Below are positions 3,001 to 18,520 of a stretch of 64,000 nt of DNA, piece by piece. The DNA comes from Alphaproteobacteria bacterium (GTDB lineage: Bacteria > Pseudomonadota > Alphaproteobacteria > Sphingomonadales > Emcibacteraceae): assembly GCA_002401455.1 (NCBI GenBank), contig NVTE01000005.1:1-64000 (forward strand), read 5' to 3'. The position numbers and the translations under genes are program-made. The notes beneath the pieces were generated by a model that had not been told where the DNA came from, ran no database searches, and saw only the letters and a program-made list of their open reading frames with translations. Numbering within the stretch: the first letter of the stretch is position 1; each line of letters opens with the position of its first letter.

Positions 3001-6000
3001 ATTCTGAAAGTGCTGGCGATGGCGGCGAGTCGGCCTTCGCGGTTCAGATCGCCATTGGTGGAGCCGGTGGCGGTTCCGGGGACGGCAATCTGGTAACGGT
3101 CAATAATATCGGCGATATTGTCACCAATGAAAAACAGAGCTACGGCATCCTGGCCCAGTCTATCGGCGGCGGCGGCGGCAATGCCTACATTAATGTTGCC
3201 GTGACCTATATTGGTAATGGCAACCGTAATAAAGGCTTTAACCTGGCCGTTGGCGGGGCAACCGGCAACGGTGGCGAGGGCGGCGTAGTTGTCGTTGATC
3301 ACCTGGGGGCCATCGAAACCTTTGAGTCTGATTCTTTCGGCATCCTGGCCCAGTCCATTGGCGGCGGTGGCGGCAACGCCGGGCTTGATTTTGCCTATAC
3401 CAAAGCCGAAGGCGGTAAAATCGGCATTTCCCTGGGACGTCAGGGCGGCTCCGGCGGCGCTGGGGCCAATGTCACCCTGAATGCGGCGGGCAGTGTCGTC
3501 ACCCACGGCGAAGGCGCTCATGCCCTATTGGCTCAGTCCATCGGCAATGGCGGCGGCAACAGTAGCTCCCGCTCCTTTTCTGGCGAAATCCCAACCGAAG
3601 GCGAGGCACCAAATCGCGGCGGCAGTGTCGCTATCGGTATTGCAGGCGGCATCGGCGGCGCGGCCGGTGATGTGACCCTAACGGCAAAAGACTGGGTCAG
3701 CACTGACGGGGCCAATGCCCATGCCATCTTCGCGCAGAGCGTTGGCGGCGGCGGCGGCAATGGCGGCAGCACCACCAGCTTTGGCATCAGCACCTCCTCG
3801 GCCAACCTGAATATGGGCGGCACCGGCGGTATCGGCGGCACTGGCGGCACTATCCTGATCACCAACGAGGCCCAGGTCCAGACCAAAGGCGCTGGCTCCA
3901 TCGGCATCATCGGTCAGAGCATCGGCGGCGGCGGCGGTAACGGCGGCATGGCACGGGGCATCTTGCTGAGCGGCAAGGGCACGGGGGCGACGGTCAGCAT
4001 CGGCGGCACCGGCGGGGTCGGCTCCACGGCGGGCACGGTCACCATCAACAATAACGGCGTGGTCGTCACCGAGGGCGAAGACGCTTACGGCATCCTGGCC
4101 CAAAGCCTTGGCGGCGGCGGCGGCAATGCTGGCATGACCATCAATGCCATGAGAAACAAAACCACAGACAAAGGCACCCAAATTGGCGTGGCCATCGGCG
4201 GCGATGGCGGTGAAGGCGCCATTGGCGGCAATGTTCAGGTCACCAACCGGGGCAGCATCGGCACCAGCGGCCGCGGCGCCATCGGCATCTTTGCCCAGTC
4301 CATCGGCGGCGGCGGCGGTAACGCCAAACAAGTGATCACCTCGTCCCTGTCCAGTGCGGGGGCCGGTAATAAAATCAGTGTCGGCATCGGCGGCACCGGT
4401 GGTGTCGGCGGCGCGGGCGGCACCGTTGACGTTCAGAACCTGAAAGCCCTGGATGGCACAGAAGGCGTGATCATTACCGCCCAGACCAATGCCCACGGCA
4501 TCTTCGCCACCAGTATCGGCGGCGGCGGCGGTACCGGCAGCACGGTCATTACCTCTAATACCTCCTTCAGTGCCGGCGATAAAGCCCCCACCAATTCCCT
4601 GGCCTTCAGCCTGGGTGGCAGCGGCGGTACCGGCGGCAGTGGTGGCACGGTCACAGTCCAAAACGATATCCGCATTGCCACCTATGGCACCCAATCCCAC
4701 GGCATCATTGCCCAGTCCATTGGCGGCGGCGGCGGTAATGGCGGCATGAGCCTATCCGGTAATATCGTTATAGGCGGCACAGCCAGCAGCAAGTCCGTAG
4801 CGGTCTCAATTGGCGGCACAGGCGGTGACGGCAATGTGGGCGGCGATGTGACGGTCACCAACAAAGGCGACATTGAAGTCTTTGGTGAGGGCTCTTACGG
4901 CGTCTTCGCCCAATCAATTGGCGGCGGCGGCGGCAACGGGGCCTTTGCTCTGGCCATGTCTAAAAACCAGGGCACCAATCTAACTAACCTTCAAAAGCTG
5001 AAGCTGATGGACTTTGCTCTTGGCGGCGCCGGCGGTGATGGTGCCAACAGTGGCAATGTGGTGGTCAACCACACCGGATCGATCATCGCCCACGGCGATG
5101 ATGCTTATGGTATTTATGCCCAGTCCGTTTCTGGCGGCGGCGGTACCGTCGGCTTCGCCATGTCGGGCCCGGTCTGGTCGGCAGTCAACAATTATATTGT
5201 TCCCCTTCTGCTCGGCAGTCGTGAGGGCGGGACCGGTATTGCTGGTAATGTGACCCTCACCACCACAGGTGCCATCACCATGACCGGCGATAACAGTCAG
5301 GCTTACGCGGCCCAGTCGGTCACCGGCGGTGGCGGCACGGTCAATATGTTCCTTGATGTCAGCGAAAAAGCTCAGGCCCTGGGCGAAGACAGTGTCGATA
5401 TTGACGATGGCGATACCCAAAATGGCGGCGGCTCAGAAGTCATTGCCGCGCTGAAAATTGAAACCATTCTCGGGTCGATAAAATCTGCCGCCTCAACGGC
5501 CAGTAATTTTGTCACGACCCATGTAGGTAATCTGGTGACATTGGGTAGAAATGCCACCGGCTCCTCGACTCAGACTGTCGGCGGCGGCGGCGGCAAGGCC
5601 AATCTGGATATTGTCATCAATGACGAGGCCCAGGCCGAACTTGATCTGCTGCTCGGCAGTAACGAGACCTCCAACAGCAGCGGCGGTGATATCATCTCTC
5701 AGCGCACCGGCGATGTGTCAACGGCGGGGGATACCTCGAAAGGCACCTCTGTCCAGTCCATCGGCGGCGGCGGCGGTGACCTGACGGTGACTATACGCAC
5801 AGTGCCTGTCACTTCTGAACCAGAAGCCCAGTCTGCACAGGTCGTGGGTAAATCCGCCCAATATACCACCCGAACAGCAGCAGGGGCAAAAGGAACCCGC
5901 AGCTTCACGGAGACCGTGATCCCGGCCCCCTCGACCATCAATGACAGCAATGCCGAAACCCTGCTGGCCCTGGGGTCATCGGCCAGCTTTGACAACCACG

Positions 6001-8363
6001 GCGGCCAGGTGATCCTGGACTTTAACGGCAATACCCAGACCCTGGGCGAACGGTCCCCAGGCATGATCATCCAGAGCATCGGCGGTGGCGGCGGTGACGT
6101 CCGCCTGACCGGCACCGGCAGCCTGAGCGCCACCTTTGGCGGTACGGGCGGCACCACCGGCAATGGCGGTGATATCATTCTGAGCAATGCGGGATCAGTC
6201 CTGACCACGGGTCGCCTGTCCCACGGCGTCATCCTGCAGAGCATCGGCGGCGGCGGCGGGACGGTCTTTACCGACCTTAGCCCGGAAAACATCGGGGTCA
6301 CCACCCGGAGTGACAACAGCGGCAATGGCGGTAACATCGGGGTCACCACCCGGAGTGACAACAGCGGCAATGGCGGTAACATCACCTTCAACCAGACCGG
6401 TGACATCACCGCGTCCGGCGACGGATCGATCGCCCTGCTGGCCCAGAGCCTTGGCGGCGGCGGGGGTCTGCTCGACCGTCTGTTCATGGACAGTGCCGGT
6501 GGCGCTGGTACATCGGGTAATATCAGCCTCAACCTTGACGGAAATATGGTCGCCGACGGCGCTGAGGGCGTGGCGGTCTTTGCCCAGTCTGTTGGTGCCG
6601 ATGGCCAGGGTGATATCACCCTGAACCTGACCCAGGACAAATGGCTGCTCGGCGGTCTTGGCGGCGCAGGACTATGGCTGTCCGGCGGCAAAGACAATGT
6701 CTTTAGCAGTTATGGCTCTGTCATGACCCTGGATATGTTGGATGGTATGGCCATGTATGGCACCACCGGTAATGACCGAATTGACAATTATAACCTGGTC
6801 TATGGTCAGTTTGACCTGGGCACCGGCACGAACCTTTTTGTCAACCACGAGGGGGCAACTTTTGTTCCCGGACAAGTTCTGTCCCTGGGGGCCGCGGAAA
6901 ATATGCTGGTCAATGATGGGACCCTGCTGATCGGCGATATGGAACTGGCCCAGCGCACCGACCTGGCCGGCAGTTTCACCCAATCGACGACCGGCCTGAC
7001 CTATGCCGAGCTGGACTTTGGCACGGACATGATTGATCAGATCCGGGCAACGGGCACCGTGGATGTAGCCGGCGTGATTAACCTGTCGCTGCTCAATCCC
7101 CATAACATCCTGTCTGGTGATTTCAGCAAGGTTCTCTACTCGGGTGATCTCGGGGCGACGGACAATGGTCTGATCCTGTCAACCTTCACTTCCCAAGTCT
7201 TCACACCGGAGCTAATCACCCCCAACGCCACCGATGTCAGCCTCCATTATGTGGTTGATTTCTCCCCGGCAGGTGTCGACAGCAACCTGTCTGAGGTTGG
7301 TGATTATTTCAACCGCCTGCAGAATGCCGGCAGTTCAGCTGACCTGGCCGAGGTGGTGACGACGTTGATCTATATTCCCGATGATGCCACTTACCGTCAG
7401 GCCCTGTCCCAGATGAGCCCGGACTTCTACGGCGAACAGCAATCCCAACTGATGACCAGCAGCGCCCAGTTTGGCCAGTCCATGATGAGTTGTCGTCAGG
7501 CGGGCGGAGAATATCGCTTTACCCGCGAAGGCAGCTGTTTCTGGATGCAGGCGGAAACCGAGAATACCACCCATAAGGCTTATGGTGACTTCAAGGCCTC
7601 CACCAGCTCCCTGACCCGCTTTGCCATGGGCCTGCAGAAAACCTTTACCCAAGACCTGTCCATTGGGTTTGCCGCCTCCCGGGCGGATAATGAAGCCCAG
7701 GGCTATGACAGCAATTGGGACAGCAGAGGCACGACCACCCAGCTTGGCCTGTCCCTGAAATATCGCAGCGGAGGCACAAAGATTGCCGCCGCCATGACCT
7801 ATGGCTGGAATAGTTCCCTGACCCATCGCCGGGGGGCCCTGGTGGAAAACTTCTATACCTCCGTCGACCGGGACCTGAACGTGCTCGGCGGCCTACTGCG
7901 TCTGTCCCATGATATTGAAGCGGCCACTGGCTATTTCCGGCCTTACGTTGACTTTGGGCTGACCCATATCATGGCCAAGTCAGCAACAGAAACCGGCGCC
8001 GGCCCCATCAGCCTGATACTGCCCGGACATAGCGAAACCCACAGCTTTGTCCGGCCCGGTATGGAAATTGGCACAGAACACCGCTTGAGCCAGAAACTGA
8101 ACCTGCGCTTCTTTGTCAATTTCTCTCTTCAGCATAACCTGTCAGGGTCACAGACCGTGGCCCAGGCCGGTCTGCTGGCCGCACCGGCGGGGGTTGATCC
8201 CATGCGGGTTGCCATTGATGTTGGCCAGAATAAGGTGGAGGCCCAGACCGGGGTAGACTTCATCCTGTCCGACAGCATGTCCCTGCGCTTCCAGTATAGT
8301 ACTTCCTTCCATGACCGGATTGAGGTAAAAAGTGGTAAGGTAAAACTCAGTCTGCCATTTTAG
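1..8363 (+). CDS. Giant Gly-rich repeat autotransporter adhesin (5' end outside window)
   Basis: The frame is open from the first bases of the window, so the gene begins upstream; the GTG at 96 lies inside a repeat and is not a start. At least 2780 residues are visible. The passenger consists of about 32 repeats, each carrying a block like AQSIGGGGGNGG followed by GGxGGxGG and a short N/T/V-rich strand, as in beta-helical adhesins of alphaproteobacteria. Repeats degenerate after about 6600. A linker (about 7300-7530) with a Cys pair (MMSC...GSCFW) leads into a barrel of about 275 residues (about 7540-8360) with alternating hydrophobic strands and a terminal Phe (KLSLPF), the BAM-recognition type of end. 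Expected role: type Va secretion of a surface adhesin; the ligand is unknown. The long opposite-strand open frames here result from GC-rich codon bias. Family assignment is firm; function is inferred. Confidence 0.93.
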   Translation, partial: LSGGGTGSGAASVAVGGSGGGGGDASTVNNTVKATVTTAGENATGVLAQSVGGGGGNGGMAIAGTVSLAKSGSGAVSVGVGGSGGLGGLSAAVTNRVEGDITTSGKNAAGIIAQSIGGGGGSGGTAIAGALSASGSVGGAVSVGIGGSGGGGGNASTVNNTVIGQTVTSGDEATGILAQSVGGGGGSGGMAIAASVSLAKTGSGAVGVGIGGSGGLGGDSAIVTNSVTGSVFTSGLNASGIVAQSLGGGGGTGGMAIAGTLSIAKSGSGAVSVGVGGSGGDGGTSANVSNTIAGYVQTLGDNSTGILTQSVGGSGGNGGLTIAGAISAAKTGSGALAVAIGGVGGGGGDGAAATSSVTGGVVTVGNDSVAILTQSIGGSGGNGGISVAGSLSLSKENGGSVAIGVGGFGGDGGDAGSVSSTVTTTTTNNQIGTKGDNSSAIIAQSLGGGGGNGGTNVSGSINLAGKNGAAVAIGVGGFGGGGGNASTVTLAVTGDVVTEGNDSHGLLAQSVGGGGGNGGTNVSGTLNITKSGTGGSVAIGVGGFGGGGGNAGDVAVTYEGTLSAKPRTFVPETTDPDTGEIIVAHYDDKEGNGSHGILAQSIGGGGGNGGTNVSGALSFASSKNGGDGHALVVGVGGFGGGGGNAGAVDVTVSGGNSITSSGEQRSGIFAQSVGGGGGNGAFNFSGGIVTDAPIVFGMGGFGGTGGSANKVTVNATTNVVTKGDRSHGIIAQSIGGGGGNGGLNISGSITYNKEKNIPSITVGMGGFGGAGNISGDVAVDHDGSITTDGKSAHGIYAQSIAGGGGDGGYNFSLGIALADSSNSGGNKDIAIVAGIGGHGGTGADAGNVTVASSGQLTTSGDLARGIFAQSVGGGGGNGGMNVSGNIAQNSSLVTMGIGGFGSGGGHAGTVTVDRGTDTMAAGTISTTGNMAHGIEASSIGGGGGDAGLNLVVGISKAGSDGSSGGSSSPREHPQHTGVDASVFTNYDKVLDELEGRDSPDSESAGDGGESAFAVQIAIGGAGGGSGDGNLVTVNNIGDIVTNEKQSYGILAQSIGGGGGNAYINVAVTYIGNGNRNKGFNLAVGGATGNGGEGGVVVVDHLGAIETFESDSFGILAQSIGGGGGNAGLDFAYTKAEGGKIGISLGRQGGSGGAGANVTLNAAGSVVTHGEGAHALLAQSIGNGGGNSSSRSFSGEIPTEGEAPNRGGSVAIGIAGGIGGAAGDVTLTAKDWVSTDGANAHAIFAQSVGGGGGNGGSTTSFGISTSSANLNMGGTGGIGGTGGTILITNEAQVQTKGAGSIGIIGQSIGGGGGNGGMARGILLSGKGTGATVSIGGTGGVGSTAGTVTINNNGVVVTEGEDAYGILAQSLGGGGGNAGMTINAMRNKTTDKGTQIGVAIGGDGGEGAIGGNVQVTNRGSIGTSGRGAIGIFAQSIGGGGGNAKQVITSSLSSAGAGNKISVGIGGTGGVGGAGGTVDVQNLKALDGTEGVIITAQTNAHGIFATSIGGGGGTGSTVITSNTSFSAGDKAPTNSLAFSLGGSGGTGGSGGTVTVQNDIRIATYGTQSHGIIAQSIGGGGGNGGMSLSGNIVIGGTASSKSVAVSIGGTGGDGNVGGDVTVTNKGDIEVFGEGSYGVFAQSIGGGGGNGAFALAMSKNQGTNLTNLQKLKLMDFALGGAGGDGANSGNVVVNHTGSIIAHGDDAYGIYAQSVSGGGGTVGFAMSGPVWSAVNNYIVPLLLGSREGGTGIAGNVTLTTTGAITMTGDNSQAYAAQSVTGGGGTVNMFLDVSEKAQALGEDSVDIDDGDTQNGGGSEVIAALKIETILGSIKSAASTASNFVTTHVGNLVTLGRNATGSSTQTVGGGGGKANLDIVINDEAQAELDLLLGSNETSNSSGGDIISQRTGDVSTAGDTSKGTSVQSIGGGGGDLTVTIRTVPVTSEPEAQSAQVVGKSAQYTTRTAAGAKGTRSFTETVIPAPSTINDSNAETLLALGSSASFDNHGGQVILDFNGNTQTLGERSPGMIIQSIGGGGGDVRLTGTGSLSATFGGTGGTTGNGGDIILSNAGSVLTTGRLSHGVILQSIGGGGGTVFTDLSPENIGVTTRSDNSGNGGNIGVTTRSDNSGNGGNITFNQTGDITASGDGSIALLAQSLGGGGGLLDRLFMDSAGGAGTSGNISLNLDGNMVADGAEGVAVFAQSVGADGQGDITLNLTQDKWLLGGLGGAGLWLSGGKDNVFSSYGSVMTLDMLDGMAMYGTTGNDRIDNYNLVYGQFDLGTGTNLFVNHEGATFVPGQVLSLGAAENMLVNDGTLLIGDMELAQRTDLAGSFTQSTTGLTYAELDFGTDMIDQIRATGTVDVAGVINLSLLNPHNILSGDFSKVLYSGDLGATDNGLILSTFTSQVFTPELITPNATDVSLHYVVDFSPAGVDSNLSEVGDYFNRLQNAGSSADLAEVVTTLIYIPDDATYRQALSQMSPDFYGEQQSQLMTSSAQFGQSMMSCRQAGGEYRFTREGSCFWMQAETENTTHKAYGDFKASTSSLTRFAMGLQKTFTQDLSIGFAASRADNEAQGYDSNWDSRGTTTQLGLSLKYRSGGTKIAAAMTYGWNSSLTHRRGALVENFYTSVDRDLNVLGGLLRLSHDIEAATGYFRPYVDFGLTHIMAKSATETGAGPISLILPGHSETHSFVRPGMEIGTEHRLSQKLNLRFFVNFSLQHNLSGSQTVAQAGLLAAPAGVDPMRVAIDVGQNKVEAQTGVDFILSDSMSLRFQYSTSFHDRIEVKSGKVKLSLPF
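3..6620 (+). repeat. Array of about 32 degenerate Gly-rich passenger repeats
   Basis: I counted the AQS[IVL]GGGGG core in the translation and found about 32 occurrences, usually 70-100 codons apart. Early copies (roughly the first 25) keep the full GGGGGNGG block; later ones drift (SGGGG, TGGGG, GADGQ). The underlying DNA is very rich in ggcggcggcggc, so the array is a likely site of recombination, polymerase slippage and assembly error. Confidence 0.9.
6288..6377 (+). repeat. Perfect 45-bp tandem duplication inside the autotransporter
   Basis: Two identical 45-bp units lie head to tail (6288-6332 and 6333-6377), each encoding NIGVTTRSDNSGNGG. They keep the frame. The neighbouring repeats are diverged, so exact identity of the two units implies a recent slippage duplication. 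Confidence 0.95.
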
Positions 8364-8411
8364 GTGGCAGGCAAGCGGGACCAAAAGATAAAAGAACGGA
8401 GTATGAGGAAA

Positions 8412-10127
8412 ATGAAATATCGCTTAATAATGATCGTCTCTTTGATCGGCGCCCTGGTTTCAGGCTGTGATTCCGCCAAGAATTCTGCCTCGGCTGATAC
8501 AATTTATGTGGACGGTGACATCCTGACCATGGAAGGCGATACGCCCACCTATGCCGAGGCTGTCGCGGTCAAGGACGGGGAAATCTTATTTGTCGGTGAT
8601 CGGCAGACCGCCTTCACCTACCGTACAGAGGCCACGGACGTGATCAACCTTGAGGGCAAGACATTTATGCCCGGCTTCATTGATTCCCACGGCCATATCT
8701 ATGGGGTTGGCCTGCAGACCATCTCCGCGCGTCTCCTGTCGCCGCCCGACGGTACGGTGACCACGGTTGCCGATATCCTCACAATCATGCAGGCCTATAT
8801 TGATGATCCGGTCAATCAGGAACTGATCACAAAAACCGGCTGGATTATCGGCTTTGGCTATGACGATTCCCTGCTCGACTTTTATCCCACCGCCAAGGAC
8901 CTGGACAAGCTCGATACCGACTATCCAGTTATGATCATCCATACCTCCCTCCATTTAAGTGTTCTGAACAGCAAAGGACTTGAGGTCGCCGGCTTCACGG
9001 CCGAAACTGAAAACCCCCAGGGCGGCATCATCCGGCGCAAGGCCGGCACCAATGAGCCCAATGGCGTGCTCGAGGAAATGCCCTTTATTGTGACCATTTT
9101 TGGCATCATGAACAGCTTCGATGAGAATATTCAGGCGGCCATGATCAAGGGCGGTCAGGACCTCTACGCCTCCTATGGTTTTACCACCGCTCAGGAAGCC
9201 CGGGCCTCGACTGCGGGGCTGCAGGCCCTGGAGCGCGCCTCCAAAGATGGTAAACTAGTGATGGATGTTGTTGCCTATGCCGATTTCCAGCGGGCCAAAG
9301 ACTCTCTCTCCACGTCCTACTACGGCCAGACCTACACAAACAGATACCGCATCGGCGGCGTGAAACTCGGCTTTGATGGCTCACCCCAAGGTAAAACCGC
9401 CTGGCTGACCCATGCCTATCATGTGGCCCCCGACGGCCAGCCCGCCGACTATGCCGGTTATGGCTCCTACCCCGATGCCAAAGCCTTCGCCCTGATTGAT
9501 GAAGCCTTCGAGAAAGACTGGCAGGTGCTGGTCCATGCCAATGGCGACGCGGCCATTGACCAGATGATCACCGGCATCGCGCTGGCGACTGAAAAATATG
9601 GCCCGAAAGACCGGAGGCCGGTTCTGATCCATGGCCAGACCCTGCGCCAGGACCAGATCGGAAAACTTGCTGAGCTGGATATTTTCCCCTCGCTGTTTCC
9701 CATCCATACCTTCTATTGGGGCGACTGGCATGAACAATCCGTACTCGGTCAGCCCCGCGCGGACTTCATTTCCCCGGCCAAAGCCGTGCTTGAGGCCGGT
9801 CTGAAATTTACCTCGCACCATGATGCGCCGGTGGTGCTGCCCAATGCCATGCGGATTCTGTCGGCGACGGTCACCCGGCGAACCCGGTCAGGCAAAGTCC
9901 TTGGCCCCGACCAGAGCGTCTCCACCTATATCGCCCTGAAGTCAATCACCGACTGGGCAGCCTACCAGCTGTTTGAGGAAGCGGATAAAGGCACCCTTGC
10001 CGTCGGTAAAAAGGCTGACTTTGTCATTCTGGATCAAAACCCGCTCAAGGTCGACCCGGACAGCCTCATGGAGATCAAAGTCCTGCAAACCATCAGCGCC
10101 GGTAAGGTCATCTATGAGAAGCCCTAA
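8412..10127 (+). CDS. YtcJ-type amidohydrolase, predicted lipoprotein (paralogue 1)
   Basis: A 571-residue protein of the amidohydrolase superfamily (Amidohydro_3). The N-terminus MKYRLIMIVSLIGALVSGC is a lipoprotein signal ending in a VSGC lipobox, so the enzyme should sit in the periplasm on a lipid anchor. Metal-site signatures are visible: GFIDSHGH (HxH), LVHANGDAAID, LIHGQTLRQ and FTSHHDAPV. The C-terminal VGKKADFVILDQNP is the usual return to the small beta-sandwich. I prefer ATG 8412 because GGAG at 8398 is 10 bases upstream; ATG 8403 is the alternative. It begins 48 bases after the autotransporter stop and ends at a strong terminator. Its paralogue lies at 14276. The substrate cannot be read from the sequence. 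Confidence 0.88.
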   Translation: MKYRLIMIVSLIGALVSGCDSAKNSASADTIYVDGDILTMEGDTPTYAEAVAVKDGEILFVGDRQTAFTYRTEATDVINLEGKTFMPGFIDSHGHIYGVGLQTISARLLSPPDGTVTTVADILTIMQAYIDDPVNQELITKTGWIIGFGYDDSLLDFYPTAKDLDKLDTDYPVMIIHTSLHLSVLNSKGLEVAGFTAETENPQGGIIRRKAGTNEPNGVLEEMPFIVTIFGIMNSFDENIQAAMIKGGQDLYASYGFTTAQEARASTAGLQALERASKDGKLVMDVVAYADFQRAKDSLSTSYYGQTYTNRYRIGGVKLGFDGSPQGKTAWLTHAYHVAPDGQPADYAGYGSYPDAKAFALIDEAFEKDWQVLVHANGDAAIDQMITGIALATEKYGPKDRRPVLIHGQTLRQDQIGKLAELDIFPSLFPIHTFYWGDWHEQSVLGQPRADFISPAKAVLEAGLKFTSHHDAPVVLPNAMRILSATVTRRTRSGKVLGPDQSVSTYIALKSITDWAAYQLFEEADKGTLAVGKKADFVILDQNPLKVDPDSLMEIKVLQTISAGKVIYEKP

Positions 10128-10253: not shown

Positions 10254-11741
10254 CTAGAGCTGGATCCAGGTGGTCTTGAGGTCGGTATATTTCTCCAGCG
10301 CGTGCAGAGATTTGTCCCGGCCAAACCCGGACTGCTTGAAGCCGCCAAAGGGCACCGTCATGTCACCCGTGGGGTCCCAGCAATTGACCCAGACCGTCCC
10401 GGCCCGCAAAGCCCGTGCCATACGGTGGGCTTGTGAAATATCCCGGCACCAGACCGCCGCCGCCAGACCGTAAATAGTGTCATTGGCGATCCTGATTGCC
10501 TCTTCCTCGCCGTCAAAGGTCAGCACCGACAGCACCGGGCCAAAGATTTCCTCCCGGGCGATGGTCATGTCCGGCGTCACATCATCAAAGATAGTCGGAT
10601 CAACGAAATAACCCGCCCGGCCCTCAGTCCGGGTGCCGCCGAGTGTCAGGGTCGCGCCTTCTGCCTTAGCGGTATCAATATAGCCCAGCACCCGCTTCAT
10701 ATGACCTTCCTCGACCAGTGCGCCCATGGTGGTATCAGGATGCAGGGGGTCGCCGACCACATGACTGGCACTGGCGCGACTGAGTTTTTCCATGAACTCA
10801 TCTTTGATCGCCCGGTCGACCAACAGCCGCGAACCGGCGGTACAGACCTCGCCCTGGTTAAAGAAAATGGCGCTGGCCGCCGCCGCCGCCGCCTTATCTA
10901 GGTCGGGGCAATCCTGGGTGATGATGTGCGGCGACTTGCCTCCACATTCCAGCGACACCCGCTTCAGGTTGGACTGACCGCTATATTGCATAAAGAGTTT
11001 GCCGACCTGGGTCGAGCCGGTGAAGGCGATCATATCCACATCCATATGCAGGCCCAGTGCCTGACCTGCGGTCTCACCAAATCCCGGCAGCACATTGAGC
11101 ACGCCGTCCGGAATTCCGGCCTCTGATGCCAGTTCCGCCAGCCGCAATATGGACAACGGGGATTGTTCCGCCGGCTTAAGCACGATGCTGTTGCCCGCCG
11201 CCAGGGCCGGACCTATTTTCCAGCAGGCCATCATCAGCGGGAAATTCCACGGCACCACAATGCCGATCACGCCCAAAGCCTCCCGGGTGACCATGGCCAG
11301 GGCCGAGGGATCGGTCGGGGCAATCTCATCCATCAGCTTGTCCGCCGCCTCGCCGTACCAGTGAATGGCACGGGCACAGCCCGGAATATCAATGGCCATG
11401 GCATCGGACACCGGCTTGCCCATGTCGAGGCTTTCCAGCAGAGCCAGTTCCTCTCTATGCTCCATAATCAGGTCCCCCAGACGCATCAGCCGCTTACCGC
11501 GCTGGGCGGGGTGCATATTGGACCAGCGGCCATCTTCAAAGGCGTCCCGGGCGACTTTTACCGCCAGATCCACATCCGCGCCGTCACATTCGGCCACCTG
11601 AACCAACGACTCGGCGGTGGCCGGGTTGATGGAGCTGAAGGTCTTGCCCGACAGGGCATCCACATACTGGCCACCGATGAAGGCTTGGTTGCGAATGGAC
11701 AGTCCGGCGGCCTTGTCGGCCCAGAATTCATACGTTCTCAT
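10254..11741 (-). CDS. puuC: Aldehyde dehydrogenase, PuuC-like (gamma-glutamyl-gamma-aminobutyraldehyde dehydrogenase)
   Basis: A 495-residue NAD(P)-dependent aldehyde dehydrogenase. Visible signatures are VPWNFPL and KPAEQSPLS (cofactor site), FTGSTQVGK (Rossmann turn), LECGGKSP (general-base Glu, about residue 265) and FNQGEVCTAGSR (nucleophilic Cys, about residue 300). Length and C-terminus (PFGGFKQSGFGRDKS) match the PuuC/betaine-aldehyde branch. It is last in the minus-strand run puuA-like, ureohydrolase, this gene (gap 47 bases), so oxidation of gamma-glutamyl-gamma-aminobutyraldehyde to gamma-glutamyl-GABA is the likely job. The start ATG has AAAGG about 8 bases upstream. The family is certain; the substrate rests on context. 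Confidence 0.88.
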   Translation of the reverse strand: MRTYEFWADKAAGLSIRNQAFIGGQYVDALSGKTFSSINPATAESLVQVAECDGADVDLAVKVARDAFEDGRWSNMHPAQRGKRLMRLGDLIMEHREELALLESLDMGKPVSDAMAIDIPGCARAIHWYGEAADKLMDEIAPTDPSALAMVTREALGVIGIVVPWNFPLMMACWKIGPALAAGNSIVLKPAEQSPLSILRLAELASEAGIPDGVLNVLPGFGETAGQALGLHMDVDMIAFTGSTQVGKLFMQYSGQSNLKRVSLECGGKSPHIITQDCPDLDKAAAAAASAIFFNQGEVCTAGSRLLVDRAIKDEFMEKLSRASASHVVGDPLHPDTTMGALVEEGHMKRVLGYIDTAKAEGATLTLGGTRTEGRAGYFVDPTIFDDVTPDMTIAREEIFGPVLSVLTFDGEEEAIRIANDTIYGLAAAVWCRDISQAHRMARALRAGTVWVNCWDPTGDMTVPFGGFKQSGFGRDKSLHALEKYTDLKTTWIQL

Positions 11742-11788: not shown

Positions 11789-12718
11789 TCAATCCCGGGT
11801 CAGGGTTTCTGAAATTAAATATAAAATATCACAGGCCAGAGTCGCCGCGGCCAGGGCGGTGACCGAGCCGATGGGATCATAGGCCGGAGCCACTTCCACC
11901 AGGTCGCCACCGACAATGGTGAGCCCCCTCAGGCCGCGGAGAATTTCCCGGCCCTGCATGATGGTTGCGCCCCCCGATACCGGCGTGCCCGTACCCGGGG
12001 CATAGGCCGGATCGAGAAAATCAATGTCAAAACTGAGATAGGCCTTCCGGTCCCCGACCCGGTCATGGATCGCCCCGGCGATATCACTATTGCTCATATT
12101 ATTCATCATGATCGCATCAATGATCTGCAAGCCAAAGGTGTCCGGGTTGGGCGTCCGGATGCCAACCTGAATCGAATGGTCAACATCAATCAGGCCTTCC
12201 TGAATAGCATGATAAAACATGGTGCCATGGTTATAACTGTCATCAACCCAGGTATCGGTATGGGCATCAAAATGGACCAGCGCCAGGGGACCATGTTTTT
12301 TCACATGAGCCCGGAGCAGGGGCAGAGAAATAAAATGATCCCCGCCCAGTGACAGCAGCGCGGTATCCCGGGAAATAATCTCCCCAGCCATGCGTTCCAG
12401 CTCCGCGGTCATGCGCTCCGGATAGGCGGTAAAGTCGCAGATGTCGCCGTAATCCACCAGGTGATGGCGGTCGGACAAATGATAATCCCAGGGCCAGACG
12501 CCCCATTCATACTCCCCGACCAGCGACGATTGCTCCCGGATCGCCCGGGGGCCGGAGCGGGCCCCGGACCGGTTGGTGGTGCCTAAGTCGTAGGGCACAC
12601 CAAGCACGGCGATATCGGCCTTGTCCAGATCCCGGGAATAGGGAAAACGCAGGAAGCTCAGGATTCCGGCATAGGCGGTTTCCCGGCTGTCTTCCGGTTT
12701 AATTTCAGTATTGCTCAT
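11789..12718 (-). CDS. speB: Ureohydrolase, agmatinase / guanidinobutyrase type
   Basis: A 309-residue arginase-fold enzyme. The binuclear manganese ligands are all present: GGDH, DAHTD and SFDIDFLDPA. GTGTPVSGG and the SIQVGIRTPN strand fit agmatinases and also guanidinobutyrases. Expected reaction: removal of urea from agmatine (giving putrescine) or from 4-guanidinobutyrate (giving GABA). It lies 38 bases after the puuA-like gene and 47 before the dehydrogenase, in one operon, so it would feed the gamma-glutamyl putrescine route or deliver GABA directly. The choice between the two substrates is not resolved. Confidence 0.88.
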   Translation of the reverse strand: MSNTEIKPEDSRETAYAGILSFLRFPYSRDLDKADIAVLGVPYDLGTTNRSGARSGPRAIREQSSLVGEYEWGVWPWDYHLSDRHHLVDYGDICDFTAYPERMTAELERMAGEIISRDTALLSLGGDHFISLPLLRAHVKKHGPLALVHFDAHTDTWVDDSYNHGTMFYHAIQEGLIDVDHSIQVGIRTPNPDTFGLQIIDAIMMNNMSNSDIAGAIHDRVGDRKAYLSFDIDFLDPAYAPGTGTPVSGGATIMQGREILRGLRGLTIVGGDLVEVAPAYDPIGSVTALAAATLACDILYLISETLTRD

Positions 12719-12756: not shown

Positions 12757-14118
12757 CTAAACATTCATCAGCAGGTAGCGGATTTCCCAAGAGGAAAGCA
12801 CGCTGAAATTATCCTTATATTCCTTTTTCTTCACATCCACATAAGTGGCCATAAATTCATCATCGAGAATTTCCCGGATCCCGTCCGCCGCCTCAAATTT
12901 CTGTAGACTGGCCAGGAAATGGGTCGGCAGCCGCTGACTGTCCAGCTCATAAGCGGACTCAGCCAGGGCGGCTGAGGGGGTCAGTTTTTCAATCATGCCC
13001 AGATAGCCCGCCAATAAGGACGCCGCGATGGCCAGATACGGATTGACATCGGCCCCGGCAATGCGGTTCTCCACCCGGCGAGATGCCCGGCCACCCGCCG
13101 GCACCCGCAGGCCAACCGAGCGGTTTTCAACACCCCAATGAAGGTTCGCCGGCGAGCTCATACCACTGCCGATTCTCAGGTAACTGTTGACATAGGGCGC
13201 CAGCAACGGCATCAGGGCCGGAATATATTTCTGCAGCCCGGCAATATGTCCGTGGAACAACGCGGTATCCGCGTCCGCCTCATCGGCAAAGACATTGCTG
13301 CCGTCCGCCGTCGAGACAACGCTCTGATGGATATGCATGGCACTACCAAACTCACCGGGATAGGGTTGGGCCATGAAGCTGGCAAACATGCCATGGCGAA
13401 TGGCGGCCTGTTTCATCAGCCGTTTAAAATAAAACGACTGGTCAGCCACCGTCAGCGGGTCGCCGTGATTGACATTAACCTCGAACTGGGCCGGGCCCGC
13501 TTCGTGGGTCAGGGTATCCATGTCAATGCCCATGACGGCGCAATATTTATAAACATCGTCGAACAGGTCGCTGAAATCATCCAGCGCCTCCAGAGACAGC
13601 ACGCCCTTATCGACCGCCTGTTTGCCGGACCGGCCCGCTGGCGCCACAGGTTTACTTTCCACATTGTCCTGACGGGCGAGCAGGAAAAACTCAAATTCCG
13701 GAGCCACTATCGGCTGCCAGCCTTTGGCTTCATACAGGGATAACACCTTCTTCAACACCTGGCGGGGCGAGGCCGGGGCCACGTCGCCATTTTCCTTGTA
13801 GGCATCACAGATGACACAGGCCGTGGGGGTCGACCGCCAGGGCACCCGGCACAGGGTGGTCAGGTCCGGGGCAAGATATAAATCTTCTTCAAGGTCAGTG
13901 ATATAATCATTACCGATAAAATCACAATTGATGGTCAGGGCAAATAAGGACTCCGGAATCCTAAGCCCCCCGCTTTTCAACGCCTGGACAAATTTCTTTC
14001 GGGGCGTGATCTTGCCCCGGCTGATGCCAGCAAAGTCACTGACCATAATCTCCACATCAACAATTTCATTGTCGCTCAACCATTTTTCGATCTCTGCGAC
14101 CTGCTCGTCATTCACCAT
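12757..14118 (-). CDS. puuA: Glutamine synthetase family protein, gamma-glutamylpolyamine synthetase (PuuA-like)
   Basis: A 453-residue member of the glutamine synthetase superfamily. The N-terminal beta-grasp begins with EIMVSDFAGISRGK. Catalytic-domain landmarks include EFEFFLL, HEAGPAQFEVN, FMAQPYPGEFGSAMHIHQS and the late VENRIAGADVNPYLAIAA. These fit PuuA/GlnA4-type enzymes that ligate glutamate to an amine using ATP. An in-frame ATG at 14169 is possible, but ATG 14118 has AGGTG 5 bases upstream and matches the usual N-terminus, so I chose it. It is first of three genes and is preceded by the TGTGATCACA operator at 14218. Putrescine is the most likely amine, by context. Confidence 0.86.
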   Translation of the reverse strand: MVNDEQVAEIEKWLSDNEIVDVEIMVSDFAGISRGKITPRKKFVQALKSGGLRIPESLFALTINCDFIGNDYITDLEEDLYLAPDLTTLCRVPWRSTPTACVICDAYKENGDVAPASPRQVLKKVLSLYEAKGWQPIVAPEFEFFLLARQDNVESKPVAPAGRSGKQAVDKGVLSLEALDDFSDLFDDVYKYCAVMGIDMDTLTHEAGPAQFEVNVNHGDPLTVADQSFYFKRLMKQAAIRHGMFASFMAQPYPGEFGSAMHIHQSVVSTADGSNVFADEADADTALFHGHIAGLQKYIPALMPLLAPYVNSYLRIGSGMSSPANLHWGVENRSVGLRVPAGGRASRRVENRIAGADVNPYLAIAASLLAGYLGMIEKLTPSAALAESAYELDSQRLPTHFLASLQKFEAADGIREILDDEFMATYVDVKKKEYKDNFSVLSSWEIRYLLMNV

Positions 14119-14217: not shown

Positions 14218-14227
14218 TGTGATCACA
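14218..14227. promoter_or_regulatory. Palindromic operator TGTGATCACA, puuA-like promoter
   Basis: A perfect 10-bp palindrome about 100 bases upstream of the puuA-like ATG, in the 157-base gap after the amidohydrolase stop. On the minus strand, a weak promoter with the TTGTGA of the operator as -35 can be drawn. The same sequence recurs at 16946 and 17173, which is why it is called an operator. Confidence 0.7.
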
Positions 14228-14235
14228 AACCCGCT

Positions 14236-14260
14236 CGGTCCCTTGGCTAACAGGGGACCG
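14236..14260 (-). other. Hairpin after the amidohydrolase gene
   Basis: CGGTCCC (14236-14242) and GGGACCG (14254-14260) form a perfect 7-bp stem with an 11-base loop, about 15 bases past the amidohydrolase stop. No U-run follows on either strand, so it is more likely a 3'-end stabiliser or weak terminator than a strong one. It separates the amidotransferase/amidohydrolase unit from the puuA-like unit. Confidence 0.55.
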
Positions 14261-14275
14261 AACGCTCTTAAAAAT

Positions 14276-16009
14276 CTATTTGCCGTAAACCACACGGCCC
14301 CCCTTCATGGTCATCTCCACCTGTATTTTATGAATCTCATAGGTTTTTGCGTCAAAGGGATTTTGATCCAGGATAATCAGGTCGGCCTTCTTGCCCACCT
14401 TGATGGTTCCGATCTCATTTTCCATATGCAGCTGGTAGGCCGCATCAGAGGTATAGCCCCGTATGAGGCTTGCCACATCCAGTCGTTCGTCAACGGAGGG
14501 CTGAACCGCAGCTTCCGGCTCTCCTGCTTGCTGACGGGTGACACCGACCTCCATATTAAACAGCGGGGACATGCCCAGCGTCCCGGCACCGGAAGCCGGG
14601 AAATCACTGCCGAAGGTCAGACGCACGCCGGCCTGTTTCAGGCTGTTATAGCGGAAATAACGGCTGAATTGATCCTCACTGACAAATTGCTCGCCCTCCC
14701 TATCATAGCTGGCCCATAACGGGGTACTTTGGGCAATGACATCCAGCTCGGCAAAGCGCCGGACCGCGGCATCGGTCATCACCTGAATATGACAGATGGT
14801 ATAACGGCTGCTGCTGTCACCATGAACGATGCGGGCGGCTTCAATGGCATTCAGAGCCTCGTGAATAGCCCGCTCGCCCAGGGCATGGATATGGACATCA
14901 ATTTGACGGGCCGCCGCCTCGACCACCATGGTGCTCAGTTCCGCCTGGGTGAAGACCGTCGTTCCCTTATTGCCCGGGTCCCCCTGATAATCCACGAACA
15001 TGCCCGCGGTGCGGCCTTCAACGGTGCCATCATCCATGATTTTCAGCATGCGGATATGGTAATCCTCTGTCTTGGTTGTTTTCGCCAAATTCTCAACCAC
15101 ATCCAGGGCACCGGCCATCTGGTCCGGTGAAGCCACCATATAGGAACCCACGAGACGCACGGAAAATTCGTCCGCCGCCGCCAGCCGTTCCAGAACCCCC
15201 AGCGCCAGATCCGCCACATCAAGCGCCCCGGCATCAAACACGGAGGTGATCCCATAGCTGTTCATGATATCGAAGATCAGCTTGGTCCCCTCAGTGATGG
15301 AGCTCACGGTAAACACATTCAGCTGATCCATGGCCATGCTTGCGGTACCTTCCAGAAACCAGCCTGTGGGCTGCCCCGCCTGATCTCTTTTATAATAATT
15401 AAAGCCCGGTGTGGGATCAGCGGTGTCCTTAGTGATGCCTAGGGCCTCAAGGGCTTTTGAATTACCCCAGCCGCTGTGAAAACCTTCATCCATGATAAAG
15501 ACCGGGCGGTCCGGCACAGCCTTATCCAGCATTTCTTTTGTCGGTCCCGTCTCGCCAAAAGCCGTGGCCAGAAAGCCATAGCCAAAAATCAGCGGCAGGT
15601 CCTTATTTTCCTCTGCATAGATACCAACGGCGGTGAGCCAGTCCTCAGGGCTGGCGAAGGTATCAAGCGACAGGGCCTTGGCATAGGCTCCGCCCATGAT
15701 GGGATGCGCGTGGGTATCAATAAAGCCCGGCAGCATGAAGCCCTTGTTTAAATCCCGGGTCTGGGTGTCTGGACCCGCATAGGCCCGGGCCTCGGCTGTG
15801 GTGCCGACAAAAATAATCTCATCACCTTTGACCGCGACCGCCTCTGCCCACGGCATATCTTCTTCCAGGGTATAGACCGCCCCATTGACGAAGATATGAT
15901 CGGCGACCTCCTGCCGCGTATCATTTTCCACCGCCCCGCAGGACGCCAGAACCATGAGGGACAGAAAGGCCACCCCCCAACTAATTTGCTTCACAATCAC
16001 CTTAAACAT
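14276..16009 (-). CDS. YtcJ-type amidohydrolase, predicted lipoprotein (paralogue 2)
   Basis: A 577-residue Amidohydro_3 enzyme. The N-terminus MFKVIVKQISWG...LASCG has a lipobox LASC, so it is predicted to be lipid-anchored and periplasmic. Metal-site motifs are LPGFIDTHAHP (HxH), VDVHIHALGERA, TICHIQVM and LTFGSDFPA. The C-terminus VGKKADLIILDQNPFD matches the paralogue at 8412. ATG 16009 is chosen because GGAGGA precedes it by 9 bases; the longer frame to 16048 lacks a better site. It follows the amidotransferase by 61 bases and shares its operator-controlled promoter. A periplasmic hydrolase of an N-acyl or amide polyamine derivative is plausible, but this is inferred from context only. 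Confidence 0.87.
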   Translation of the reverse strand: MFKVIVKQISWGVAFLSLMVLASCGAVENDTRQEVADHIFVNGAVYTLEEDMPWAEAVAVKGDEIIFVGTTAEARAYAGPDTQTRDLNKGFMLPGFIDTHAHPIMGGAYAKALSLDTFASPEDWLTAVGIYAEENKDLPLIFGYGFLATAFGETGPTKEMLDKAVPDRPVFIMDEGFHSGWGNSKALEALGITKDTADPTPGFNYYKRDQAGQPTGWFLEGTASMAMDQLNVFTVSSITEGTKLIFDIMNSYGITSVFDAGALDVADLALGVLERLAAADEFSVRLVGSYMVASPDQMAGALDVVENLAKTTKTEDYHIRMLKIMDDGTVEGRTAGMFVDYQGDPGNKGTTVFTQAELSTMVVEAAARQIDVHIHALGERAIHEALNAIEAARIVHGDSSSRYTICHIQVMTDAAVRRFAELDVIAQSTPLWASYDREGEQFVSEDQFSRYFRYNSLKQAGVRLTFGSDFPASGAGTLGMSPLFNMEVGVTRQQAGEPEAAVQPSVDERLDVASLIRGYTSDAAYQLHMENEIGTIKVGKKADLIILDQNPFDAKTYEIHKIQVEMTMKGGRVVYGK

Positions 16010-16070
16010 TACCAAAATTCCTCCCTCAATTTTTATCATAGGCGCCATTATTTCCGGCTCAATTTACGAC

Positions 16071-16913
16071 TCAGGCCGCGGCCTGCTCAACGAAATCCAG
16101 CCAGTTACTGATCTCCTGCAAGCGACAGCAGGGGTCGAGAACGTCCTCTGCCAGATTATGATGGGCTATGATGTCCGCCCGGCCTGCTTCATTCTGCGCC
16201 GCCCGAAAGTCGGAAGCCAGTTGGCTTACTGCCGCCTCATCAGGGCAAAAGCCCTCCTCAATCATCATGGTCTTATATTTATCAAACAGCATGGCAATAT
16301 AATCCAGATCAAATTCAGGATGATATTGCACGCCCCAGAAAATCGCAGACCCCTGCCTGATTTCCAGAGCCTGAACCCGACTCATGTCATTGCCGGACAG
16401 GATGGTTGTTCCCTCGGGCAGGCTCACCACATGATCCAGATGGATGGCGACCGCATCAAAGGACACGGACTTATTTTTATAGAGCGGATGCTGGCGGCCT
16501 GAGGCCGTCAGCTGAATATCACGGGCGATACCAATCTCCCGGCCCTTGGCATTCTGGGCCACTTGCCCGCCAGCCGCCACAACGGCAACCTGAAGCCCCC
16601 AACAACTGCCAAATATTTTGACCTTTCGGGCGAAACAGCTTTTCATGAAATCAATCTGGCGCGTGATCGCCGGCTCAGTATTATAAATATTCAACGCTGA
16701 CCCAGTCCAGATAATCCCGTCATACCCCTCAAGCTCTAACCCCGTCGGCAAAACTGCCCCCTCATCGGCTGGATATACGGTATCACAGATGATATCCGCT
16801 TTTAAGGCCAGCAGGGTTTTGTGATAAAGCTCCCCCTGGGTTACGCCACCAGAGGTCGCGGTCAGCGCCCGGGCGTCCTGTGTGTTTCCTTCTACAATCA
16901 ATATATTCGTCAT
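16071..16913 (-). CDS. Class I glutamine amidotransferase, possible gamma-glutamyl-GABA hydrolase
   Basis: A 280-residue class I (triad) amidotransferase of the GuaA-like COG0518 type. The nucleophile elbow is FGSCWGLQ and the His-Glu pair is QYHPEFD; an oxyanion-type WTGSALN precedes it. No synthase domain is attached. In E. coli the last Puu step is done by PuuD, a triad hydrolase of a different subgroup (C26). No PuuD is present here, and this gene sits in the same regulon, so it may cleave gamma-glutamyl-GABA. ATG 16913 follows AAGGTAA by 5 bases; the TTG at 16940 is rejected. A C-terminal extension of about 60 residues after the triad is not explained. Confidence 0.8.
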   Translation of the reverse strand: MTNILIVEGNTQDARALTATSGGVTQGELYHKTLLALKADIICDTVYPADEGAVLPTGLELEGYDGIIWTGSALNIYNTEPAITRQIDFMKSCFARKVKIFGSCWGLQVAVVAAGGQVAQNAKGREIGIARDIQLTASGRQHPLYKNKSVSFDAVAIHLDHVVSLPEGTTILSGNDMSRVQALEIRQGSAIFWGVQYHPEFDLDYIAMLFDKYKTMMIEEGFCPDEAAVSQLASDFRAAQNEAGRADIIAHHNLAEDVLDPCCRLQEISNWLDFVEQAAA

Positions 16914-16945
16914 GTGGTTACCTTGAGTATTCCCGTACAAAATAA

Positions 16946-16959
16946 TTTGTGATCACAAA
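16946..16959. promoter_or_regulatory. Palindromic operator TTTGTGATCACAAA, amidotransferase promoter
   Basis: A perfect 14-bp palindrome, 33 bases upstream of the amidotransferase ATG. A TATAGT -10 on the minus strand (16967-16972) would place the transcription start on or beside the palindrome, a typical repression geometry. Confidence 0.75.
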
Positions 16960-17155
16960 CTGTGTCACTATAGGCGCCACTTTTCAAGATAATTTATCAA
17001 TTATTTCCCAGTCATCGGTAAATTAAGCCGAATTCAAGCTGAAATCGGGACGGGTACAAGATATTAAATGATATGAAAATCAACCGACTCGCCACCCCCC
17101 AACAGGTCATAACCCCTTCCCAACATGGTCTTCACCCCTCAGACGAAAATAAATC

Positions 17156-17184
17156 TTGACAATCGGCGTAAATGTGATCACAAA
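17156..17184 (+). promoter_or_regulatory. puuB-like promoter with TGTGATCACA operator
   Basis: A consensus -35 TTGACA at 17156-17161 stands 17 bases from a poor -10. TGTGATCACA (17173-17182) covers the spacer and the -10. The gene start is at 17213. Overlap of operator and core promoter suggests a repressor released by a pathway metabolite. The intergenic stretch 16914-17212 contains two of the three operators and otherwise nothing I recognise. Confidence 0.68.
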
Positions 17185-17212: not shown

Positions 17213-18520
17213 ATGACCAACGATCCCGCCCGGAAGAATGATGTTTTTGAATCCCATCCGGATTCCTATTATCATGCCACAGCCAAGGGCCTGACCAGCT
17301 TTCCCCGGCTGGAGGATGACGTGCGCTGTGATATTTGTGTCATTGGCGGCGGCTTCACCGGCCTGTCGGCGGCCCTGCATCTGAGGGAGCTGGGCTATGA
17401 CGTCATCCTGCTGGAAGCCCACCGCATCGGCTGGGGCGCGTCGGGCCGAAATGGCGGCCAGTTGGGCTCCGGTCAGCGGGTTGGCCAGGATACTCTGGAA
17501 AAAATGGTTGGCAAACAGGGGGCCCGGGTGCTCTGGGACCTGGGCGAAAGTTCAAAAAATCTGGTCAAGGACCTGATTACCAAACATAACATCGACTGCG
17601 ACCTGAAACCGGGTGTGCTCCATACCGCCCATAAGAAAAGTTATGTGGATGACTATCGCCATGAGGTCGAGAAGTTCCACACGGACTATGATTATGACCA
17701 GATACGATTCGTCGATGGCGATGAAATGGCTGATATGTTGGGCATGCGCACCTATCACGGCGGCACACTGGATATGGGGGCCGCCCATCTGCACCCGCTA
17801 AACCTGGCCCTGGGACTTGGTCGCGCCTGCAAGTCTGCCGGGGTCCGCATCTATGAAAACAGCCCGGTTCAGTCCTATGTTGAGGCGGGAAAGGTCACCA
17901 TCAACACCCCCAGTGCCACTGTCACCGCTGACAAACTTATTCTGGGCTGTAACGGCTATCTGGGCAATCTGGAGCCACGACTGGCGGGCAAGATCATGCC
18001 GATCAACAATTTTGTTGTGGCGACGGAGCCACTAGGCGAAGAACGGGCTCGGATGATTAACCGGGATGATGTAGCGGTGGCTGATTCAAAATTTGTCATC
18101 AACTATTTCCGTATGTCCGCCGATCACCGGCTACTGTTTGGCGGTGGCGAGAATTACACCCCCTCCTTCCCCAAGGATATCTCTGGCTTTGTCCGTAAAT
18201 ATATGCTGCAGATTTATCCCAGCCTGAAAGATGTTAAAATTGATTACGCCTGGGGCGGCGCGCTGGCCATCACCCTGAACCGCATGCCCCATGTGGGTAA
18301 GCTGGGCAACAATATCTATTATGGCCAGGGATTTTCCGGCCATGGTGTCGGTATGGCCACCCTTGTCGGCAAGGTCATGGCCGAAGCCATCCACGGCCAG
18401 CAGACAAATTTTGATGTCTTTGAGAAAGTCCCGACCTACCCCTTCCCCGGCGGCCGCACCCTGCGCTGGCCAATGATGGTCCTGGGCATGATCTATTACG
18501 CGCTCCGGGACCGGCTTTAG
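17213..18520 (+). CDS. puuB: FAD-dependent oxidase, gamma-glutamylputrescine oxidase (PuuB-like)
   Basis: A 435-residue DAO-family flavoprotein. The dinucleotide fold is at about residues 39-60 (CVIGGGFTGLSAALHL), followed by GWGASGRNGGQ, a hallmark of PuuB/OrdL proteins. The C-terminal FAD contact is GQGFSGHGVG. It should oxidise gamma-glutamylputrescine to the aldehyde with release of ammonia and peroxide. It is transcribed away from the amidotransferase unit, and the two promoters carry matching operators. The start ATG has GAGGTG 4 bases upstream. Length agrees with the family. The flavin oxidase call is firm; the substrate is from context. Confidence 0.88.
   Translation: MTNDPARKNDVFESHPDSYYHATAKGLTSFPRLEDDVRCDICVIGGGFTGLSAALHLRELGYDVILLEAHRIGWGASGRNGGQLGSGQRVGQDTLEKMVGKQGARVLWDLGESSKNLVKDLITKHNIDCDLKPGVLHTAHKKSYVDDYRHEVEKFHTDYDYDQIRFVDGDEMADMLGMRTYHGGTLDMGAAHLHPLNLALGLGRACKSAGVRIYENSPVQSYVEAGKVTINTPSATVTADKLILGCNGYLGNLEPRLAGKIMPINNFVVATEPLGEERARMINRDDVAVADSKFVINYFRMSADHRLLFGGGENYTPSFPKDISGFVRKYMLQIYPSLKDVKIDYAWGGALAITLNRMPHVGKLGNNIYYGQGFSGHGVGMATLVGKVMAEAIHGQQTNFDVFEKVPTYPFPGGRTLRWPMMVLGMIYYALRDRL

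What the first reader, a model, noticed from the sequence alone, without database searches (positions are those of the whole stretch)
14218..17182. A shared TGTGATCACA operator defines a polyamine regulon
The palindrome occurs in three intergenic positions only (14218, 16946 as a 14-mer, 17173), each in the promoter of a different transcription unit of the puu-like region. Its places differ (over -35, after -10, over -10) but all fit repression. I found no other intergenic copy in the window. E. coli PuuR uses another sequence, and CRP sites have a 6-base spacer, so the cognate regulator looks different (GntR-like is a guess) and is not encoded nearby.
Basis: partly seen in the sequence, partly recalled or inferred. 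Interest (0 to 1): 0.72.

Follow-up and report, generated by a model that had tools for sequence, protein, structure and literature searches.

The report
GntR operator of a polyamine-breakdown regulon
Three identical short DNA palindromes in front of polyamine-breakdown genes look like the docking sites of a GntR-type gene switch that travels with such genes in many proteobacteria, a different switch from the one E. coli uses for the same kind of pathway.

Summary
The three TGTGATCACA palindromes are real, intergenic and above chance (3 found, 0.08 expected). The draft genome (69% complete) holds six exact copies; five lie at two polyamine loci, the window and a second locus on contig C5 with a GntR/FCD regulator, "GntR-B". 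In relatives a paralogue, "GntR-A", sits head-to-head with the GATase gene in 12 of 12 clusters read. In three of these it fills exactly the GATase-puuB gap that is empty in the window. Around 80 GntR-A homologues there are 143 copies, 0.97 expected; 73 lie within 400 bp of the gene. Within 400 bp upstream or 300 bp downstream the palindrome is at 45 of 80, no other 10-base palindrome at more than 4. Of 16 relatives with this PuuA, all 14 with GntR-A or GntR-B carry the site at the cluster; the two without carry none in the stretch read. I found no report of this operator in the papers searched.

The parts
14218..14227 (.). operator of the puuA-speB-puuC unit, 99 bp before the puuA start
   Evidence: TTTGTGATCACA invariant in 4 of 4 aligned puuA promoters
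16946..16959 (.). operator (14-mer TTTGTGATCACAAA) of the GATase-amidohydrolase unit
   Evidence: 14-mer invariant in 6 of 6 aligned GATase promoters
17173..17182 (.). operator of puuB, over the presumed -10
   Evidence: TGTGATCACAAAA invariant in 4 of 4 aligned puuB promoters
16960..17172 (.). 213-bp gap where G004, G010 and G017 carry the GntR-A gene; no remnant of the gene found here
12757..14118 (-). puuA-type glutamine synthetase family (gamma-glutamylpolyamine synthetase-like)
   Evidence: Gln-synt_C; NCBIfam GGputSyn matched but below its cut-off
11789..12718 (-). speB, agmatinase
   Evidence: NCBIfam agmatinase above cut-off
10254..11741 (-). puuC-type aldehyde dehydrogenase
   Evidence: Aldedh; best NCBIfam PuuC, below its cut-off
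16071..16913 (-). class-I glutamine amidotransferase (PuuD-like role inferred)
   Evidence: GATase, Peptidase_C26
14276..16048 (-). Amidohydro_3 protein with lipoprotein-like N-terminus, downstream of the GATase
   Evidence: lipoprotein reading is mine from the sequence
17213..18520 (+). puuB-type FAD (DAO) oxidase
   Evidence: DAO; 77-81% identical to G004, G010 and G028 proteins

Best explanation
TTTGTGATCACAAA-type palindromes are operators of a clade of GntR/FCD (FadR-subfamily) regulators tied to glutamylation-type polyamine catabolism. A dimer sits on the core promoter of each unit and keeps RNA polymerase off; a polyamine or pathway intermediate bound by the FCD domain would release it. 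In most relatives with the pathway the regulator (GntR-A) is encoded in the cluster, head-to-head with the GATase gene and beside its own operators. In the window's genome GntR-A is absent from that spot; its paralogue GntR-B, third gene of a contig-C5 operon (membrane protein, class-III aminotransferase, gntR-B) that is headed by the same operator, probably controls both loci in trans. Shown: the sites, their conservation, and regulator-site-pathway co-occurrence. Inferred: binding, repression, inducer, loss (rather than gain elsewhere) of GntR-A, and GntR-B as the acting protein.
For: 80 GntR-A homologues (best 80 of 109): 143 copies in 65 of 80 loci against 0.97 expected, 1.6-1.8 per kb within 200 bp of the gene against 0.02-0.09 beyond 400 bp. 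Within 400 bp up or 300 bp down at 45 of 80 loci, next-best palindrome at 4. 296 genomes: the 12-mer is in 22 of 28 genomes with a GntR-A-type hit (E 1e-25) and 23 of 268 others, Fisher 1e-15 without correction for relatedness. Pathway test in 60 relatives: 14 of 14 PuuA genomes with GntR-A or B have the site at the cluster, 0 of 2 without. GntR-A is head-to-head with the GATase gene in 12 of 12 clusters. G041, like the window's genome, has GntR-B but no GntR-A and two sites 120 bp apart at its cluster. Footprints.
Against: No binding, expression or ligand data. GntR-B is only 32% identical to GntR-A, and that both read the same site rests on neighbourhoods. The genome is 69% complete, so GntR-A could be elsewhere. 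Distant homologues often lack an exact close site (2 of 11 at 36-42% identity, 3 of 19 below 36%), and 29 of 80 loci show no pathway gene by BLAST, 17 of them with a site. Several GntR-like hits have no 12-mer in their genome (6 of 28). Genomes without GntR-A/B can hold as many scattered 10-mers (G012 and G020 have 7 each). FCD operators are reported with 2-3 nt between GT and AC, here 4.
Confidence: 0.82

Rival explanations
1. The sites belong to a PuuR/PauR-type XRE-cupin repressor encoded elsewhere in the genome.
For: The genome has a PuuR-like HTH_3 + Cupin_2 protein on C5 (37% to E. coli PuuR, E 6e-35) beside a class-III aminotransferase, and two weaker hits (24%). PauR controls this pathway in Pseudomonas from a palindromic motif (PMC7901475, passages). 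PuuR-like genes also lie within about 8 kb of GntR-A in G017 and G028.
Against: No TGTGATCACA in the 15 kb around the PuuR-like gene, although XRE-cupin regulators studied in that paper all bind next to their own gene. In G037 a PuuR-like gene is directly beside puuD-puuA and the 19.9 kb hold no site. None in the E. coli puu region. Only 2 of 80 GntR loci have a PuuR-like gene. The PauR logo itself was not seen.
Confidence: 0.07
2. The window's operators are unoccupied relics: GntR-A was lost, GntR-B does not bind here, and the cluster is constitutive or under another control.
For: GntR-A is missing from its usual place and GntR-B is only 32% identical.
Against: All three palindromes are intact in diverged intergenic DNA, and GntR-B loci carry the same palindrome in this genome and in G041 where GntR-A is not found.
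Confidence: 0.08
3. CRP/FNR-type or other global-regulator sites, or chance clustering.
For: TGTGA...TCACA resembles CRP half-sites (recalled); the 10-mer occurs in 43 of 60 relatives, often unlinked.
Against: CRP sites have a 6-base spacer (recalled), here none. Sites track one local regulator gene, including in genomes of 65-70% GC.
Confidence: 0.03

Closest known systems
PuuR (E. coli) / PauR (P. aeruginosa)
   Same: Control of glutamylation-type polyamine catabolism by repression from several promoters (PMC7901475, passages)
   Different: XRE-cupin proteins; E. coli puu region lacks this palindrome. Here GntR/FCD: an unrelated regulator for the same kind of pathway
FadR-subfamily (FCD) GntR regulators
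   Same: GntR + FCD domains, palindromic A/T-flanked operator with GT/AC boxes, sites in divergons beside the regulator gene
   Different: GT and AC are 4 nt apart; the survey PMC4494728 gives 3 or 2 for this subfamily and 4 for HutC. No polyamine regulon in the passages seen ('polyamine' occurs 0 times in its main text)
E. coli McbR/YncC
   Same: Closest solved structure by profile (1e-45) and by fold (TM 0.78/0.91)
   Different: 27% identity; helix SITPVRE against S-[P/A]-M-P-V-R-E; no palindrome at 0-1 mismatch in 7.0 kb around mcbR or 5.0 kb around mcbA

Membership tests
GntR/FCD (FadR subfamily) regulator (GntR-A, GntR-B) | N-terminal GntR winged helix | tested here: met
   PF00392 above cut-off in both
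GntR/FCD (FadR subfamily) regulator (GntR-A, GntR-B) | C-terminal FCD domain | tested here: met
   PF07729 above cut-off in both; fold matches FCD structures
GntR/FCD (FadR subfamily) regulator (GntR-A, GntR-B) | typical operator TKGT-N2/3-ACMA (a usual, not a defining, trait; exceptions are known) | tested here: not met
   operator reads TTGT-GATC-ACAA, spacing 4
GntR/FCD (FadR subfamily) regulator (GntR-A, GntR-B) | binds the proposed operator | not testable with these tools
   association only
HutC-subfamily GntR | UTRA C-terminal domain (recalled) | tested here: not met
   Pfam finds FCD, no UTRA
PuuR/PauR XRE-cupin | HTH_3 plus Cupin_2 in the candidate regulator | tested here: not met
   GntR-A and GntR-B have neither
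CRP operator | TGTGA-N6-TCACA (recalled) | tested here: not met
   no spacer
Puu (gamma-glutamylation) pathway | PuuA-, PuuB-, PuuC- and PuuD-type enzymes together | tested here: inconclusive
   all four enzyme classes present in the window, but NCBIfam GGputSyn and PuuC score below their cut-offs and substrate is untested

The most novel reading that the evidence does not exclude
This GntR/FCD clade is a second, unrelated master regulator of glutamylation-type polyamine catabolism in Proteobacteria, and its regulon reaches the outer membrane: a TonB-dependent receptor and a TPR-sulfotransferase protein under the same operator would form an uptake and processing route for polyamines or their conjugates.
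Probability: 0.4. Interest if true: 0.65.

Novelty: new variant of a known kind. Interest (0 to 1): 0.5.

Why it matters
It names a likely regulator and operator for polyamine breakdown in lineages (Emcibacter relatives, Hyphomicrobium, Roseibium, Rhodobium, Pinisolibacter and others) where PuuR/PauR does not account for the sites. The regulon becomes computable from sequence and pulls in uncharacterised partners (TonB receptor, a membrane protein without family, an amidohydrolase). The window looks like a cluster whose own regulator is gone while its operators remain, perhaps served by a paralogue. The 4-nt spacing bears on the DNA-recognition code of FCD regulators.

Tried and rejected
PuuR/PauR as the regulator: searched in the genome, neighbourhood of the best hit read, no sites; kept as a weak rival. 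The two weaker hits (C5:19926, C8:105112) were not read; no exact copy lies near them. CRP: rejected by spacing (recalled rule). A remnant of GntR-A in the gap: tblastn gave only noise (best E 0.47), and the clear DNA matches to G004 and G010 lie at the operators and their flanks and at the puuB end of the stretch. Second FCD-like protein (C13, below cut-off): not pursued. McbR as a model for the operator: no palindrome near mcbR or mcbA. Sigma-70 scan: 8 promoter-like hits against 3.2 expected, did not settle the promoters. Sites outside the clusters in G019, G024 and G026 lie near mixed genes (for example MFS, YcaO, PhyH, sulfatase, UvrC): chance or a wider regulon, not resolved. My script label APCtransp632 was wrong: Pfam shows a FAD/NAD-binding protein. 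Thresholds of 65% (GntR-A) and 54% (GntR-B) were set after seeing the hits: with them 15 of 15 genomes have the 12-mer against 30 of 281; the unselected set (22 of 28 against 23 of 268) is the one I rely on. GntR-B was searched in 60 genomes only.

Literature: TGTGATCACA is in 12 papers, all listed, none about such an operator by title and abstract start; four related strings are in 169 papers, 40 listed, so 129 were not seen. The one bacterial candidate opened is a PCR primer (PMC12724174, passage). Searches for a GntR polyamine regulator gave none in the listings (and 55 lists complete, one search listed 20 of 57); 'glutamylputrescine' with 'gntr' gave 0 papers. A McbR listing was not followed. 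PMC3754595, the main PauR paper, is not held. PMC7901475, PMC4494728 and PMC5343134 were seen as passages, PMC4494728 also as outline and one section. RegPrecise could not be searched.

Rows and limits: one search kept the best 80 of 109 relatives. One search's helix tally left 4 of 80 rows unparsed and mis-read at least one (L121); one search recounts on alignment A6. One search placed 79 of 80 ORFs (L101 missing); A6 is 65 sequences of my choice. Neighbourhoods were chosen by me from hits. The listings are cut by the tool; the per-genome counts are whole.
Full report
Observation. TGTGATCACA occurs exactly three times in the window, all between genes, against 0.08 expected from shuffles. The sites head puuA-speB-puuC (minus), GATase-amidohydrolase (minus) and puuB (plus). 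That at 16946-16959 is the full 14-mer TTTGTGATCACAAA.

Whole genome. The window is the start of contig C8 of a 2.08-Mb draft genome, 69.4% complete. It holds six exact copies, about 2.6 expected by scaling the window's shuffles. Three are the window's. Two lie 109 bp apart on contig C5 in a divergent region: on one side an overlapping membrane protein - class-III aminotransferase - GntR/FCD regulator gene set, on the other a second puuB-like oxidase, a TPR-sulfotransferase and a TonB-dependent receptor. The sixth is inside an unrelated coding sequence on C12. With up to one mismatch there are 62 places, what chance gives (about 64), so the exact palindrome and its places carry the signal. The C5 regulator, 'GntR-B', is the only FCD protein above the Pfam cut-off; a second hit is below it.

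Relatives. The 10-mer is found in 43 of 60 relatives. I read 20 neighbourhoods chosen from the hits. In G004, G010, G017, G019 and G033 sites cluster with polyamine-type genes and a GntR/FCD gene. In the other genomes read there (G002, G007, G012, G013, G016, G018), and at single places of G012, copies lie in or near other genes, so the 10-mer alone is not diagnostic. G012 also has another GntR/FCD gene with a copy just downstream. A second site of G017 lies upstream of a glutamine-synthetase-like gene. 'GntR-A' of G004 is 67-83% identical to those of G010, G017 and G019, 43% to that of G033 and 32% to GntR-B.

The gap. A uniform tblastn over the clusters of 15 relatives shows GntR-A head-to-head with the GATase gene in 12 of 12 genomes that have GntR-A. 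In G004, G010 and G017 the order is GATase - GntR-A - puuB, and the window has the same flanking genes with only 213 bp between the operators. In G004 and G010 the operators lie on both sides of GntR-A; in G017 an exact site is found only on the puuB side. No trace of the gene is left in the window's gap. Loss in the window's lineage is the simplest reading.

Regulator-operator link. A scan of named species genomes with GntR-A gave 109 relatives; the best 80 were kept, from Emcibacter/Kordiimonas relatives, Hyphomicrobium, Roseibium, Rhodobium, Pinisolibacter, Shinella, Bradyrhizobium, Variovorax, Plasticicumulans, Aidingimonas and others. In 1.40 Mb there are 143 copies in 65 of 80 loci; a first-order Markov model expects 0.97. 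Density is 1.6-1.8 per kb within 200 bp of the gene and 0.02-0.09 beyond 400 bp. Within 400 bp up or 300 bp down it is at 45 of 80; no other 10-base palindrome is at more than 4. By identity to GntR-A the counts are 9 of 13 (60% or more), 31 of 37 (43-59%), 2 of 11 (36-42%) and 3 of 19 (below 36%); several of the distant ones have TGAGATCACA or another one-mismatch form instead. By BLAST 37 of 80 loci hold at least three pathway classes, all 37 with a site; 29 hold none, 17 of these with a site, so distant members may serve other pathways. Fifteen other FCD loci of relatives (3.6 kb or less each) hold one copy among them; two of the fifteen, G000 and G041, are GntR-B genes whose sites lie further off.

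Co-occurrence. Among 296 genomes of the order the 12-mer TTGTGATCACAA is in 45 and a GntR-A-type hit at E 1e-25 in 28. The 12-mer is in 22 of the 28 and 23 of the other 268 (Fisher 1e-15; relatedness not corrected). Among 60 relatives 16 have PuuA at E 1e-90. Fourteen of them have GntR-A or GntR-B, and all 14 carry the site at the cluster. The two others, G056 and G037, carry none in the 17.2 and 19.9 kb read; G037 has a PuuR-like gene beside puuD-puuA instead. G041 has GntR-B but no GntR-A, and two sites 120 bp apart, like C5 here.

Promoters. Aligned orthologous promoters keep the operator while much else differs: puuB in four genomes, with CTTGACA invariant before it; puuA in four, 99-100 bp before the start in the window, G004 and G010 (starts); GATase in six. 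Promoter elements are inferred; all three positions suit repression. Thirty-six copies of the core loci have mostly T before and A after.

The protein. GntR-B has GntR and FCD domains. Its AlphaFold model (mean pLDDT 89.3, 65-sequence alignment) matches E. coli McbR best (27% identity, TM 0.78/0.91), as does the profile search. In the 65 proteins the recognition helix has S in 64, M in 63 at the place of McbR's T, and P and R in 65 (McbR). That this sets the specificity is inference. In the tree GntR-A and GntR-B fall in different subclades, some forks weakly supported; a close site is not confined to one of them. FadR-subfamily operators are described with GT and AC 3 or 2 nt apart (PMC4494728); here it is 4.

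Verdict. The regulon and the guess of a GntR-like regulator are supported. New are the regulator clade, the missing gene in the gap, likely trans control by GntR-B, and the breadth of the operator. Binding, sign and inducer are untested. I found no report of this operator, or of a GntR/FCD regulator of this pathway, in the held papers by the searches named (mostly listings); subscription papers and RegPrecise were not searched.

Noticed in passing
L007:9016-14335 (own contig C5); L264, L265, L266, L269: A TonB-dependent receptor and a TPR-sulfotransferase protein follow puuB2 on C5; in G045, G050, G055 and G059 a TGTGATCACA lies between the like pair. Possible outer-membrane arm of the regulon.
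   Followed up: partly
L007:7925-8782 (-): A 285-aa membrane-type protein without Pfam or NCBIfam match heads the gntR-B operon; homologues lie in most of the polyamine clusters read.
   Followed up: no
window 8364-10127 (+) and 14276-16048 (-): Two Amidohydro_3 proteins flank the cluster; the second lies under the GATase operator and its homologues sit in the clusters of G010, G017, G026 and G028.
   Followed up: no
G028:C322:1676-2344: A second GntR-A copy (71%) with one in-frame TAA beside an intact copy on C319.
   Followed up: no
L047:8302-9057 (G012): A GntR/FCD gene (37% to GntR-B by BLAST) with ACTGTGATCACAGT just downstream, beside genes not matching the polyamine set.
   Followed up: no
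L221:7441-7989 (own contig C5, from 379441): PuuR-like XRE-cupin gene beside a class-III aminotransferase, with no palindrome in 15 kb.
   Followed up: partly
window 96-8363 (+): Open frame of 2755 aa made of repeated glycine-rich QSxGGGGGNGG-type units, autotransporter-like by eye.
   Followed up: no
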